Shown here: positions 1 through 20,359 of the stretch, in pieces
Position numbering within the stretch: position 1 is the stretch's first letter
How the letters are laid out: every line of letters starts with the position of its first letter
Assembly (NCBI RefSeq): GCF_947387515.1
Contig: NZ_CANDOB010000006.1
Location: 1 to 59,547 of the forward strand
From: Alkalihalobacillus sp. CinArs1
GTDB taxonomy: Bacteria > Bacillota > Bacilli > Bacillales > Guptibacillaceae
Length of the DNA stretch: 59,547 nt
Direction of reading: 5' to 3'
Program-made: the position numbers and the translations under genes
Notes under the pieces: model-generated
The model's input: the letters and a program-made list of their open reading frames with translations, nothing else
Told to the model about the DNA's origin: nothing
Database searches by the model: none

Positions 1-75
1 AGAACACGGAAGTTAAGCTCGCGCGCCGATGGTAGTTGGGGGCTCTCCCCCTGCAAGAGTAGGACGTCGCTAGGC
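1..75 (+). rRNA. rrf: 5S ribosomal RNA, 3' part (gene starts before the window)
   Basis: The first 75 bases match the 3' two thirds of a Bacillus 5S rRNA: the GAACACGGAAGTTAAGCTC block, the GCCGATGGTAGT block and the closing GAGAGTAGGACG-type arm (here CAAGAGTAGGACGTCGC). The 5' end lies outside the window. It closes an upstream rrn operon on the + strand. A terminator follows at once with no tRNA genes in between. The exact 3' end is inferred from the B. subtilis 5S end. Confidence 0.95.
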
Positions 76-82
76 AAATGAG

Positions 83-115
83 AAGTCAGAGCATTGAGCT
101 CTGGCTTTTTTGTTT
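83..115 (+). terminator. rho-independent terminator of the upstream rrn operon
   Basis: Arms 83-92 and 98-107 form a 10-bp stem with one G-T wobble and a 5-base loop, followed by a T-rich run at 106-115. It sits 8 bases after the end of 5S rRNA. Confidence 0.9.
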
Positions 116-162
116 TGTCTGAATGCGGGGTTGAGTCATCAGGGGCTCTTCTTGAAATGTGG

Positions 163-416
163 TTCGCGGATATGTCCTCAGAATCGCGGATAAATGCCCC
201 GGTTTCGCGGATATAAATCGAAAAGCGCGGATATATCATGATTATCGCGGATAAAATGAAAATTTCGCGGATATCGCCCCAATTCACGCCCCAAAAGGTT
301 TTATCTGAATGTGCTTTTAACAAATCAAAAGTTACAAACAACGCTTCGCTGATAAAACCAAACGATCGCCGATAAATCCAAAATATCGCTGATATCCTTC
401 CTAAAAGCGCAAATAA
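163..416. repeat. array of short degenerate repeats phased at about 20 bp
   Basis: The stretch 116-562 has no credible gene. Within it the core TCGCGGATA recurs with its first C at 165, 185, 206, 226 (as GCGCGGATA), 246 and 266, steps of 20, 21, 20, 20 and 20. A decayed copy follows near 285. A variant, TCGC(T/C)GATA, recurs at 347, 367 and 387, exactly 20 apart, with a decayed copy near 408. All copies have the same orientation, and the 20-base period rules out coding. The bases between cores are AT-rich and not conserved, so this is neither a CRISPR nor a simple tandem duplication. I see no promoter inside it. Function unknown. Confidence 0.85.
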
Positions 417-562
417 CCCATTCCAGCATTCTACCCTAAAACAAACCCATTGCATCCTTTCTAATCTCTCCCATTTCGAAGCAACAATCAATACATTCCA
501 CGTTAAACTTCACTAATAGAAGGGTAAAATACATCAAAAGAAAACAGAGAAAGGGATCTATT

Positions 563-1276
563 ATGGAAGTATTCGACATCACACTAGCAGACAATTTCGA
601 TACAATATCGATACGGATTTTGATCGCAGCAGTATTAAGTGGAGTTATAGGAATCGAGAGAGAGTTTAAAAGGCACCCAGCAGGTTTTCGAACTCACATT
701 CTTGTTGGGGTTGGAGCGTGTTTGATGATGCTATTATCTCTATATGGTTTTGAAGAATATAATGAGACTCACGCTAATATTAACTTTGACCCTTCTCGTA
801 TCCCCTCATATGTCATAAGTGGTATAGGGTTTTTAGGTGCTGGAACAATATTAGCAAACGGTTGGACCGTGAGAGGACTAACAACTGCAGCATCGATTTG
901 GGTAGTTGCTGGGATAGGGTTAGTTGTCGGAGTAGGAATGATCTATGAGGCGATATTGACTACACTGATCGTTGTATTGAGCCTCGTTTTCTTAAGCAAA
1001 ATCGAGAAGCTCTACCTTTCTAAGTCACAGCATTGGGTGAATCTCTTTGTTGAGGAGGGGCTTTCGTTAAAGTCTGTTATAGAAAAGATAGAGGAAATGG
1101 ATATAAGTGTTCTAGAAATGAAAACGGATGATCCAAAAAAAGCGCGATATGAAGGAGATAAGAAAATCTATACGTATTCAATCCTAGTGAATACAAATAA
1201 TGCAACGAAACTCTCAACACTAGTCGATCACCTTAAAGAAATCGAGAAGATAAAAAGAATTAATTGCAAGGAATGA
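563..1276 (+). CDS. MgtC/SapB family inner-membrane protein
   Basis: A 237-residue protein of the MgtC family. The N-terminal half carries the family signature: a glycine-rich segment ending GIERE near residue 31, then AGFRTH and a GVGACL stretch. Hydrophobic segments lie near residues 16-33, 44-62, 80-97 and 105-145, followed by a soluble tail of about 90 residues. Known of the family: MgtC proteins act in adaptation to low Mg2+ or acid and in some bacteria modulate ATP synthase or P-type ATPases; whether they transport is disputed. Start ATG 563 has AGAAAGGGA just upstream. A weak promoter (TTAAAC 503-508, 16 bp, TAAAAT 525-530) is possible. The gene stands alone between the rrn operon and ctsR. 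Substrate and role here are not shown. Confidence 0.85.
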   Translation: MEVFDITLADNFDTISIRILIAAVLSGVIGIEREFKRHPAGFRTHILVGVGACLMMLLSLYGFEEYNETHANINFDPSRIPSYVISGIGFLGAGTILANGWTVRGLTTAASIWVVAGIGLVVGVGMIYEAILTTLIVVLSLVFLSKIEKLYLSKSQHWVNLFVEEGLSLKSVIEKIEEMDISVLEMKTDDPKKARYEGDKKIYTYSILVNTNNATKLSTLVDHLKEIEKIKRINCKE

Positions 1277-1335
1277 ATGCCATATATATGGGAATGATGG
1301 TAAGGTTCAAGCAAAGAATTGAAGAGACATGTTAC

Positions 1336-1389
1336 TTTCCAATCCATTTGAAAAACGTTATAATGTATTTAACGTCAAATATAGTCAAA
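1336..1389 (+). promoter_or_regulatory. ctsR promoter with CtsR heptad operator
   Basis: TATAAT at 1359-1364 is preceded by TTTCCA at 1336-1341 with a 17-bp spacer. At 1374-1389 lies GTCAAATATAGTCAAA, two GTCAAA heptads separated by a 3-base gap, matching the CtsR operator type (direct repeat of GGTCAAA). It covers the transcription start region, so bound CtsR would block initiation. This is the autoregulatory arrangement known from B. subtilis clpC operons. Confidence 0.85.
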
Positions 1390-1420
1390 GTCAGTTTGGA
1401 GACGGAAGGGAGGCAGCGAT

Positions 1421-1885
1421 GTGCGGAATGTTTCCGATGTAATTGAAGCATACATTAAGAAAATCTTGATGGTAGAAGGTAGAGATGCTGTTGAGATAAA
1501 AAGAAGTGAGATTGCTGATAAGTTTCAATGTGTTCCTTCTCAAATTAATTATGTGATCAACACCCGCTTTACGATTGAAAAAGGATATATTGTGGAAAGT
1601 AAAAGGGGTGGAGGCGGTTATATAAGAATATTAAAAGTGAAGCCTGAGACGCATGCAGATTTAATAGATGACATGCTGAATATGATTAAGACCCAAGTGC
1701 CACAGGCGGTATCTGAAAATATTATTCTAAGGCTGTTAGAAGAAGAGGTTATTTCAGCACGAGAAGCGAAGTTAATGCTAAGTGTTCTCGATCGAACAGT
1801 CATTACGATAGAGTTGCCGCTGAGAGATCACCTTAGAGCTAATATGCTGCGTGCAATGCTGACATCACTAAAATATAAACAATAG
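1421..1885 (+). CDS. ctsR: CtsR, repressor of class III heat-shock genes
   Basis: A 154-residue repressor with an N-terminal winged helix-turn-helix and the near-invariant block around residues 34-68 (FQCVPSQINYVINTRF, then the glycine-rich wing SKRGGGGYIRI). The C-terminal domain, about 80-154, is the dimerisation part and the part targeted by McsB and ClpC. Known role: binds heptad repeats before clpC, clpE and clpP; heat unfolds the wing and McsB/ClpCP removes it. Start is GTG 1421, with AAGGGAGG at 1406-1413. It is the first gene of a four-gene operon and has a CtsR site at its own promoter. Confidence 0.97.
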   Translation: MRNVSDVIEAYIKKILMVEGRDAVEIKRSEIADKFQCVPSQINYVINTRFTIEKGYIVESKRGGGGYIRILKVKPETHADLIDDMLNMIKTQVPQAVSENIILRLLEEEVISAREAKLMLSVLDRTVITIELPLRDHLRANMLRAMLTSLKYKQ

Positions 1886-1914
1886 CATTTGTGTACAAAT
1901 AGGAGGGTTGCCCT

Positions 1915-2448
1915 ATGACGTGCCAGGAATGTGGTGAGCGTCCCGCTACGCTCCACTTCACTAAGATAGTCAATGGACAAAAAACAGAGTTCCATATCTG
2001 TGAAGTGTGTGCCAAAGAAAAAGGTGAGGTTGAGCCAGGCACTAACCATTTTTCTATCCATAACTTATTATCGGGGTTATTAAATTTTGAAACACCTTTA
2101 AGTGAAAGTTCTTCACACCCTATTTACAATAGAGAACGGCAAAGTTGCCCGAAATGTGGATTAACATATCAGCAATTCACACAAATCGGTCGATTTGGTT
2201 GTTCAGAATGCTACACTACGTTCTCAGAGAACCTCGATCCAATACTTAGAAAGGTTCATGGTGGTAATACCGTTCATTCTGGCAAATTACCAAAACGTGC
2301 TGGAGCAGCGATCGAGATTGAACGTAAGGTACAAAATCTTCGCAGTAAAATGCAAGAATACATTCAGCAGGAGGAATTTGAAAAAGCTGCTGAAACGAGA
2401 GATTTAATTCGATCCCTCGAACATAAAGCGTCGGAAGGGGGAGAATGA
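1915..2448 (+). CDS. mcsA: McsA, zinc-binding activator of the McsB arginine kinase
   Basis: 177 residues. Four CXXC zinc motifs are visible: CQEC near residue 3, CEVC near 29, CPKC near 80, and the CSEC that follows. A UVR-type helical motif ([20 protein letters not shown]) closes the protein. Known role: McsA activates McsB and tunes CtsR; zinc loss under oxidative or metal stress disrupts it. A GGAGG site precedes ATG 1915. The stop overlaps the start of mcsB, so the two are translationally coupled. Confidence 0.96.
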
Positions 2449-3542
2449 TGTCACTTCAGCGTTTTATCAGTGAAGCTGTTAGTCCATGGATGCAAGATGA
2501 AGGACCAGATTCAGATATTGTCATGAGTAGTAGAATAAGATTTGCTCGAAATCTGAAGAATTATGTTTTTCCGGTTCTTTCTAACGGGCAGCAAAATTTA
2601 GAGGTTCTAGAAAGTATCAAGAAGAAATTTAATGCAGCTCCGAACGAAGAAATTGGGAAGCTTGAACTGATCGAGATTGAATCGCTTAGGCCTACTCAGA
2701 AAAGAGTTCTTGTAGAAAAACATTTGGTTAGCCCAAATCTTGTAGAACAATCAAAAAATGGAGCAGTCTTACTCAGCGAGAATGAAACGATCAGCATAAT
2801 GATAAATGAAGAAGATCATTTTCGTATTCAGTGCCTTGAAGCAGGGTTTAGATTGAAAGAAGCCTTAAACCTCGCGAATGCTTTGGATGACTGGATTGAA
2901 AGTAAGGTAGATTATGCGTTTGATAAGCGAAAAGGATATTTAACGAGCTGTCCAACGAATGTTGGCACAGGGATGAGGGCATCTGTTATGATGCATCTAC
3001 CTGCTTTAGTGCTAACACAGCAGCTAAATCACATCATACCTGCAATCAACCAGCTAGGTCTTGTTGTTAGAGGGAGCTACGGTGAAGGAAGTGAAGCTCA
3101 AGGAAACATTTTTCAAATATCAAACCAGATTACATTAGGTAAGACCGAGAATGATATTATTGAGGACCTCCAGGGCGTAGTGATGCAAGTCATTGAAAAA
3201 GAACGATCAGCAAGAAGGATGTTGCTAGATAATTCAAGAATTGAATTGGAAGACAGAATCTATCGTTCTCTTGGAACTCTTGAGAATAGCAGAATCATTC
3301 AATCGAAGGAAGCTGCGAAGTGTCTTTCAAATGTCCGGTTAGGAATCGATATCGGTCTTGTAGCTGGTATCTCGAAATCAATTCTTAACGAGCTAGTAAT
3401 TCTAACTCAACCAGGTTTTCTTCAGCAATATGCAGGTGCAAGCCTTAATCCTGCAGAACGTGATATTAAACGTGCCACATTAATTAGAGAGAGACTTGAA
3501 CTAGAAAAACAAACGAAGAAATCGGAGGGTGATGAACGATGA
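2448..3542 (+). CDS. mcsB: McsB, protein-arginine kinase
   Basis: Homologue of phosphagen (creatine/arginine) kinases that phosphorylates arginine on proteins, tagging them for ClpCP. Visible family blocks: SSRIRFARN near residue 28, the [14 protein letters not shown] nucleotide-binding block near 165 and [10 protein letters not shown] near 205. Length 364 is typical. Two in-frame ATGs (2445, 2448) are possible. I chose 2448 because B. subtilis McsB starts MSL and the GGAAGGGGGAG site is then better spaced. ATGA overlap with mcsA; the stop overlaps clpC by 4 bases. Confidence 0.96.
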
Positions 3543-12599: not shown

Positions 12600-12856
12600 A
12601 TACAAAACGATGATGAGGAGAAGTAAGTGAATCGCATCTTATTAGAGAGAGCCGTCTCGGCTGAAAGCGGCTTAAGATTGTCTTCACTGAAATGCACCTC
12701 TGAGTCTCCTACAGAACTTCTGTCAGAAAAGTATGTAGGAGCGGTAACCGCCGTTAATGGTGAAAGGTATTTCCTTATAGGAGATATAAAACAGAGTGGA
12801 ACCACGCGAAAGCGTCTCTGTGTGATCGATATAATCACACAGAGACGCTTTTTTTA
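12600..12856 (+). promoter_or_regulatory. T-box leader, cysteine-specific, upstream of cysE
   Basis: The leader carries the T-box GAGTGGAACCACGCG at 12794-12808, followed by a terminator. A TGC triplet followed by A at 12693-12695 is the likely Cys specifier codon. The antiacceptor bulge reads UGGA, which pairs with UCCA, that is, with a tRNA whose discriminator base is U; tRNA-Cys of Bacillus has U73. Uncharged tRNA-Cys would favour the antiterminator and so turn on cysE-cysS and the genes behind. The 5' boundary and stem I are estimated. No clear promoter was identified. Confidence 0.9.
12811..12855 (+). terminator. conditional terminator of the cysE T-box
   Basis: A perfect 16-bp stem (12811-12826 with 12834-12849), 7-base loop and T run to 12855. 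The left arm starts just after the T-box sequence, as expected of a terminator that competes with the antiterminator. Confidence 0.95.
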
Positions 12857-20164: not shown

Positions 20165-20199
20165 TTAAAATGTTGTTTGATAAGTTAATACTTTCTGTA

Positions 20200-20305
20200 C
20201 CGTAGACAGCAGGGGTGCTAGGCACTTAATATCCTGCCGAGGTGTGAAGTGTTTCGATACAAGTGATCGTTAATGCCTTCATGTCTTCGGATGTGAAGGC
20301 TTTTT
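20200..20305 (+). promoter_or_regulatory. L10(L12)4-responsive leader with attenuator
   Basis: The conserved L10-leader core is readable as CCGTAGACAGCAGG followed, after a variable part, by CTTAATATCCTGCCGAGG (about 20200-20242). Downstream GCCTTCA 20275-20281 and TGAAGGC 20294-20300 close an 11-bp stem on a UUCG tetraloop, followed by TTTTT: an intrinsic terminator. Known of this leader class: excess L10-L12 complex binds it and lowers rplJ-rplL expression. Confidence 0.88.
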
Positions 20306-20359
20306 ATATGACCTCATACTCCGGAACGGTATAGACACATTTCTATAGGAGGTGGAACA

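What the first reader, a model, noticed from the sequence alone, without database searches (positions are those of the whole stretch)
163..416. Array of 9-bp motifs phased at 20 bp next to an rRNA operon
TCGCGGATA-type cores begin at 165, 185, 206, 226, 246 and 266, and a TCGC(T/C)GATA variant at 347, 367 and 387, with decayed copies near 285 and 408. The block-to-block distance (266 to 347, 81 bases) also keeps the 20-base phase. All copies point the same way, only the core is conserved, and the linkers vary in sequence but not in length. Two helical turns per unit put every core on one face of the DNA, which suggests a polymerising or cooperative DNA-binding protein, a nucleoid or segregation element, or a mobile-repeat family. 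It is not coding (20 is not a multiple of 3) and not CRISPR-like.
Basis: seen in the sequence. Interest (0 to 1): 0.7.

Follow-up and report, generated by a model that had tools for sequence, protein, structure and literature searches.

The report
Nuclease-paired phased DNA repeat arrays
The repeats beside this ribosomal RNA operon are one of many evenly spaced DNA motif clusters on the chromosome that track, species by species, with one DNA-binding nuclease-like protein, and they look like a two-part system, not found described in the papers searched, whose target code is swapped and rewritten in evolution.

Summary
The array is real (5 phased pairs in the window, 0.00 expected by shuffling). 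It is one of 25 arrays at 20 fetched sites of this genome, 20 of them with six slots, spaced 20/21 bp. The main result lies outside the window. Such arrays flank a lone gene for a NERD (PD-(D/E)XK-like) + zinc-ribbon + winged-helix protein: 83 of 92 genes tested versus 7 of 199 control ORFs, and cores differ between gene lineages. A core read beside a distant relative's gene found 39 phased pairs in that genome and none in 13 others. Within the genus, three pairs of alleles, about 95% (third pair about 85%) identical overall, drop to 35-60% in one ~200-bp cassette: the recognition helix and wing plus the adjacent array. At orthologous sites whole arrays changed core in concert. One genus member lacks the gene and nearly all arrays. 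The array is very probably the cognate binding-site cluster of this protein. What the pair does (REP-like resident, defence, chromosome organiser) is open. I found no description of it in the searches made.

The parts
1..75 (+). partial 5S rRNA copy (bases 42-117 of the gene) at the start of the window
   Evidence: L028 (= window 1-2500) matches L012's 5S gene at 94.7% over 76 columns; L012 has a full 5S and then such a truncated copy
80..110 (+). terminator-like hairpin between the 5S remnant and the array
   Evidence: scan; consensus match only
164..273 (+). R-type array, six units TCGCGGATA at 164, 184, 205, 225 (GCGCGGATA), 245, 265
346..394 (+). Y-type array, three units TCGC(T/C)GATA at 346, 366, 386; the type that sits beside this genome's NERD gene
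407..415 (+). decayed fourth Y unit, GCGCAAATA, in phase (386+21)
   Evidence: read

Best explanation
The array is a cluster of helically phased binding sites for one dedicated chromosomal protein. That protein has a NERD domain (PD-(D/E)XK-like nuclease), a zinc ribbon and a C-terminal winged helix; in this genome its gene is at G000:C1:1062398-1063363(-), outside the window, with a Y-type array directly 3'. SUPPORTED by sequence: gene and arrays belong together; the recognition helix and wing set the array core; cores are under purifying selection and, at the orthologous sites compared, change in concert between species with different alleles. INFERRED: one winged helix reads one 9-11-bp core, and units two helical turns apart put 4-6 or more protomers side by side on one face of the DNA, so binding is cooperative. 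INFERRED, weaker: the pair is a long-resident genome-wide system that works like a REP/RAYT duo (an enzyme plus its dispersed cognate repeats). Arrays dock the nuclease, and the gene is kept with its own array because a reader without matching sites is useless or harmful. I give the pairing about 0.85, cooperative phased binding about 0.7, the REP/RAYT-like role about 0.4.
For: (1) Chain of 4 or more 20/21-spaced units within 700 bp of 83 of 92 NERD ORFs (one gene entered twice: 82 of 91) against 7 of 199 control ORFs. (2) All 38 of 299 order genomes with TCGCNGATA pairs have the gene, against 218 of 299 overall; hypergeometric 2.3e-6. (3) A core read beside the gene of G016 gave 39 phased pairs there, 0 in 13 other genomes, controls 0. 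(4) Cassette swap between alleles: L202/L225, L197/L199, L198/L201. In the E and C alleles (7 of 7 loci) and in G002 the gene's stop codon lies inside the first array unit. (5) Residues 286-315 track core similarity (rho 0.186, 0 of 1000 permutations); among pairs under 50% identical rho is 0.134, against -0.024 for residues 1-285. (6) Concerted core change at orthologous sites, groups A-D and L022/L161. (7) Core identity 0.989 vs linker 0.815 (G003-G004, 7 pairs) and 0.952 vs 0.66 (G000-G002, 9 pairs). (8) G007 lacks the gene between ilvD and VOC and has 1, 0 and 0 matches of the three cores. (9) D79, E92, K94 in 92 of 92, E46 in 91 of 92 (one gap), four Cys in 92 of 92. (10) Model pLDDT 88 with secondary structure of a winged helix at the C-terminus.
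Confidence: 0.8

Rival explanations
1. Chromosome-organising or topology element: arrays are landing strips for an architectural protein at 3' ends of genes and rRNA operons; the nuclease fold serves as a branched-DNA resolvase or is structural.
Against: Patchy (218 of 299 in the order) and lost in G007; specificity changes fast and paralogs in one genome have different cores; no significant strand preference in tandem gaps (46 vs 35, p 0.27); in G016 11 of 12 array sites lie within about 210 kb.
Confidence: 0.25
2. Defence or self-marking system: chromosomal arrays hold a nuclease in check and its specificity diversifies under phage pressure, as in restriction systems.
For: Conserved active-site residues; swappable recognition module like a target-recognition domain; up to seven family members per genome with distinct cores; NERD region resembles that of the defence kinase MAD6 (E 1.6e-7 but 30 bits against cut-off 460).
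Against: No PADLOC model below E 0.0019 and no NCBIfam model above its cut-off (4 proteins); no relative in phages or plasmids by tblastn with one member and none confirmed among 65 viral-contig candidates; the 6 viral-contig matches show one pair each of this core.
Confidence: 0.2
3. Purely selfish repeat family spread by the nuclease (homing-like).
For: Clustering of arrays near the gene in G016; arrays on both sides of some genes; chains of up to 45 units in B. fonticola and 988 phased pairs in G131.
Against: In six genomes of the genus only 6 of 870 array pairs share two or more consecutive linkers, several of them rrn copies, and many arrays lie at orthologous sites, so no sign of recent spread there.
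Confidence: 0.25
4. RNA element or terminator.
For: Divergent gaps avoided, convergent favoured.
Against: RNA folding near shuffle level (z 0.47, 1.32, -1.72, 0.48); spacing fixed at two DNA turns; no significant strand preference in tandem gaps.
Confidence: 0.03

Closest known systems
REP/REPIN sequences and TnpA-REP (RAYT), 'REPtrons'
   Same: A chromosomal enzyme with its own co-evolved dispersed repeats (PMC8266576 and PMC8049555: abstracts and outlines seen).
   Different: Direct 20/21-bp phased repeats, not palindromes; a NERD/PD-(D/E)XK-like protein with zinc ribbon and winged helix, not a Y1 HUH protein.
ParR/parC plasmid centromeres (20-bp repeats of pSK41; family-specific parC in C. 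perfringens plasmids)
   Same: Direct repeats, one cognate binder per repeat family, cooperative binding (PMC9426499: passages seen).
   Different: Many chromosomal sites; NERD-wHTH protein; no plasmid record matched one family member by tblastn.
NERD-domain proteins (Pfam PF08378)
   Same: Pfam NERD at E 5.5e-21 to 1.5e-15 in 5 of 5 scanned.
   Different: This subgroup adds a zinc ribbon and a winged helix and is tied to phased arrays; nothing I saw in the NERD searches (listings and two passages) says so.
Iteron origins of plasmids
   Same: Phased direct iterons bound by winged-helix initiators (recalled).
   Different: Tens of chromosomal copies; the recurring neighbour is a NERD protein.

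Membership tests
NERD family PF08378 | significant match to the NERD profile | tested here: met
   5 of 5 proteins scanned, 58-76 bits against cut-off 22.1
NERD family PF08378 | PD-(D/E)XK active-site residues present | tested here: met
   D79, E92, K94 in 92 of 92; E46 in 91 with 1 gap; their role as catalytic residues is recalled from the motif, not tested
NERD family PF08378 | nuclease activity | not testable with these tools
   needs purified protein
REP/REPIN-RAYT | repeat is an imperfect or perfect palindrome that folds | tested here: not met
   asymmetric 9-bp core in direct orientation; folding of the window arrays near shuffle level, RNA parameters
REP/REPIN-RAYT | partner is a Y1 HUH transposase | tested here: not met
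   the recurring neighbour has NERD and no Y1 match in 5 proteins scanned at E up to 1
ParMRC partition system | adjacent actin-like ParM and small ParR binder | tested here: inconclusive
   clusters of 323 nearest-neighbour proteins looked at only by their first residues; ParM/ParR profiles not searched
Known anti-phage system in PADLOC | match to a defence protein model | tested here: not met
   4 proteins, best E 0.0019, to a part of PglW
CRISPR | repeats of about 23-50 bp with similar-sized unique spacers (recalled) | tested here: not met
   9-bp core with 11-12-bp linkers; cas genes not searched for

The most novel reading that the evidence does not exclude
An order-wide class of chromosomal two-part systems: a nuclease with an exchangeable winged-helix reader and its own phased DNA arrays. 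Reader and array travel as one ~200-bp specificity cassette (in some alleles the gene's stop codon is part of the first repeat), and the host's dispersed arrays are then rewritten base by base to the new code or decay. The arrays act as docking (self) sites without which the nuclease is idle or harmful, which would make them a DNA-encoded antidote or licence.
Probability: 0.4. Interest if true: 0.95.

Novelty: categorically new. Interest (0 to 1): 0.85.

Why it matters
It gives a dispersed bacterial repeat family a protein partner and, through natural domain swaps, a readable protein-DNA code: some 33-35 residues against about 10 bases, with 83 gene/array examples ready for study. It is a case where several chromosomal sites can be seen changing specificity together with one protein at orthologous positions. 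It makes the question why bacteria keep dispersed repeats directly testable by swapping a 200-bp cassette. It also suggests a target for a nuclease-like family present in 218 of 299 genomes of the order.

Tried and rejected
Literature: core string (55 papers, 20 listed, listing only, titles unrelated), phasing and nucleoid terms (4 papers, listing), NERD plus nuclease-related domain (10 papers; one passage each read in PMC10910872 and PMC12802215), phased repeats (16, listing), NERD domain plus tandem repeat (0), Alkalihalobacillus plus intergenic repeat (0), NERD domain (19, listing). None that I saw links NERD to repeats; most subscription papers are not held.

Chance: rejected. RNA structure: no support. 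rRNA operon as the defining site: rejected, 5 of 20 own loci (Rfam alone showed rRNA in 1 of 20). Phage or plasmid origin: no support. Recent transposition within the genus: little support. Whole-protein Mantel test: not significant. Orthology by MgtC: in the genus only G002 had the close orthologue (89%), plus G001 of the other genus (61%); I did not follow the window's own site further. The array finder failed through a script bug, so loci went unmasked and its reciprocal hits rest on unmasked loci; the alignments were read by eye. Structure: no confident fold match; no sequence relative in the PDB better than E 0.2. An earlier wording of mine, that every array beside the gene reads along the gene, did not hold: see the full report.

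Full report
OBSERVATION. The window carries six TCGCGGATA-type units from 164 to 273 (the one at 225 begins with G) and three TCGC(T/C)GATA units at 346, 366 and 386, spacing 20 or 21, all on the + strand. Five phased pairs are found against 0.00 expected in shuffles, and no other place in the window has a chain of four or more units.

GENOME. The window is G000:C6:1-59547 of a 4.03-Mb, 11-contig genome. The phased pair occurs 36+46 times there and the reversed control 0+0. These fall into 25 arrays at the 20 loci that I fetched: 15 of Y type (T/C at base 5) and 10 of R type (G/A). By the slot count, 20 of 25 have six slots. Neighbouring exact cores are 20 apart in 53 cases and 21 in 29, mean 20.35. 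A full or partial 5S gene lies in five of the 20 loci, including this window.

DISTRIBUTION. With this core, arrays occur in number in 5 of the 14 genus members, and one pair in G007 (6 of 15 genomes of the family); in the order 38 of 299 genomes and 22 of 116 genera have a match (reversed control non-zero in two genomes, G107 with 6 and G242 with 1). In Bacillus fonticola chains reach 45 units at exactly 20 bp, and G131 has 988 pairs of the CGCGGATA core.

CONTEXT. Among 8-kb named loci, arrays lie in convergent gaps more often than other gaps (36 of 102 vs 39 of 273, p 1.8e-5) and rarely in divergent ones (9 of 102 vs 84 of 273, p 3.9e-6). In tandem gaps there is no significant strand preference (46 vs 35, p 0.27). 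ORFs here are mechanical, not annotated.

THE PARTNER GENE. Clustering 323 nearest-neighbour proteins gave one largest family of 14 entries; in four loci it lies between two arrays (L087, L100, L118, L138). It matches Pfam NERD and has four invariant cysteines. The AlphaFold2 model (pLDDT 88, pTM 0.82) has at its C-terminus helices 265-276, 283-290, 295-304 and strand 317-319, as in a winged helix. Fold matches are weak: Card1/Can2, McrC and Holliday-junction resolvases for the N-terminal part; winged-helix proteins, some ArsR-like, for the C-terminus. D79, E92, K94 are present in 92 of 92 aligned proteins.

TEST 1, ADJACENCY. I took the 92 NERD loci held after (L192-L203, L208-L287: top-scoring hits; 57 genomes and 31 genera by my count from those tables). 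A de novo chain of four or more 20/21-spaced units (steps of 40-42 allowed) lies within 700 bp of 83 (82 of 91 without a gene entered twice, L215/L228). Of 329 control ORFs, the 199 without TCGCNGATA in their flanks were counted: 7 positive. Cores differ between gene lineages; seven paralogs of G115 (L228-L234) have seven different cores. Read by the A-rich end of the core, most arrays beside the gene run along the gene, but L216 looks opposite and several are unclear (by eye); on average cores resemble each other more in the same orientation (0.310) than with one reversed (0.250).

TEST 2, CO-OCCURRENCE. All 38 genomes with this core have the gene at E up to 1e-40 (searches compared by eye), against 218 of 299 in all; p 2.3e-6. 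In a phylum sample 4 of 299 have it: three of the four order members listed, own genome included, and one weak hit in the class.

TEST 3, PREDICTION. The core TTAGACNGAA, read beside the gene of G016, gave 39 phased pairs in G016, none in 13 other genomes, none in the reversed control. Eleven of twelve array sites, counted by hand, lie within about 210 kb that include the gene.

TEST 4, NATURAL SWAP. In the genus the gene sits between ilvD and a VOC-family gene (names by recall from the sequence). G009 and G010 are about 95% identical across this locus except for a ~200-bp stretch of 35-60% that starts after codons for RRFL(R/K)MDS and ends near the terminator: it holds the last 33-35 codons and the array. 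G010 has TCGCGGAA cores (E), G009 GCCAATA cores (C). G014/G013 show the same at 82-100% outside, and G006/G005 at lower and more uneven identity outside (mostly 75-95%, one other drop downstream). In the seven E and C loci and in G002 the stop codon lies inside the first array unit; in G000, G003 and G004 it precedes the array. Over 83 gene/array pairs, similarity of residues 286-315 tracks core similarity (rho 0.186, 0 of 1000 permutations), also 281-300 and 241-270 (0 of 1000), weaker 291-305 (11) and 41-160 (45), not 161-235 (120) or 2-40 (655); among pairs under 50% identical, 286-315 gives 0.134 and 1-285 -0.024. Whole-protein distance does not track it. Pairs are not independent, since related species are included.

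TEST 5, CONCERTED CHANGE. Reciprocal best loci and alignments show orthologous arrays with TCGCGGATA cores in G003/G004 and TCGCGGAATTA-type cores in G009/G010 (groups A and B, the looser group C with G003 only, and group D with G004, where G000/G002 have G/A at base 5), and Y cores in G000 against R cores in G002 at one site. Between like types cores are far better conserved than linkers: 0.989 vs 0.815 (7 pairs) and 0.952 vs 0.66 (9 pairs); for E arrays between G010 (E allele) and G009 (C allele) the contrast is weak, 0.966 vs 0.926, p 0.06 (7 of 8 pairs given had enough cores). In ten orthologous E arrays G010 has more exact cores in 7, as many in 2, fewer in 1. In six genomes 6 of 870 array pairs share two or more consecutive linkers, so most arrays are old.

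TEST 6, LOSS. Pair matches by core, resident type read at the gene: G003 R 28, C 1; G004 R 35, C 4; G012 R 34, C 3; G005 C 22, E 2; G006 E 14, C 5; G008 E 30, C 29; G009 C 24, E 21; G010 E 35, C 27; G011 E 17, C 3 (gene split between two frames); G013 C 41, E 44; G014 E 25, C 37; G000 82 and G002 66 of TCGCNGATA, R and Y together. G012's array at the gene is down to one unit. G007, which lacks the gene with ilvD and VOC still flanking the gap, has 1, 0 and 0. The 13 gene carriers of the genus have their resident type at 14 or more pairs; the other type ranges from none to as many, which I can explain only by supposing frequent allele exchange. Resident arrays are more intact than the others in G000 (80 of 87 vs 41 of 54 slots, p 0.012) but not significantly in G002 or G010.

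READING. The R and E readers share the helix sequence DAATRLL (most E and both R) and the TCGCGGA half of the core, and differ in the wing and the AT half; Y differs from R in the helix (AAKR or AVKR vs AATR) and at base 5 (alignment). This suggests helix to GC half, wing to AT half; inference only. Spacing, mean 20.35 here, 20.0 in B. fonticola and 21 beside some other genes, keeps cores on about one face.

FUNCTION. Fast specificity change, many paralogs, patchiness and dispensability speak for a semi-selfish or conflict-driven system; conserved positions and strong core conservation speak for a use to the host. REP/RAYT duos are the nearest analogue in how it works; membership fails on both features tested. 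Defence and chromosome organisation remain open rivals.

NOVELTY. I rate it categorically new because repeat geometry, protein class and cassette swap together fit no named system that I tested; the caveat is that only an open-access library was searched.

Noticed in passing
1-75: The window starts in a truncated second 5S copy (bases 42-117), not the full 5S gene; L012 shows a full 5S, a truncated 5S and then an array.
   Followed up: partly
L022 and L161, downstream of the array: Relic TTTGGCCAATAAA-like array on the opposite strand beside the TCGCNGATA array, in species whose gene is of another type (by eye).
   Followed up: partly
G107: Six matches to the reversed control pattern: perhaps an array of yet another core.
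   Followed up: no
G010:C1 (single contig): 26 of 31 array sites that I listed lie in the first half of the chromosome, none between about 1.9 and 3.2 Mb.
   Followed up: partly
G011:C1:1905304-1906265: The NERD gene is split between two frames while 17 E-type pairs remain; several order members carry one or two in-frame stops.
   Followed up: no
12601-12822 and 20182-20315: T-box leader and ribosomal protein L10 leader, ordinary.
   Followed up: no
13458 and 59322: Isolated single TCGCNGATA cores on the + strand.
   Followed up: no
L386, contig end: Viral contig with a CAGATAATC-like repeat of about 10-bp period at the one matching pair.
   Followed up: no
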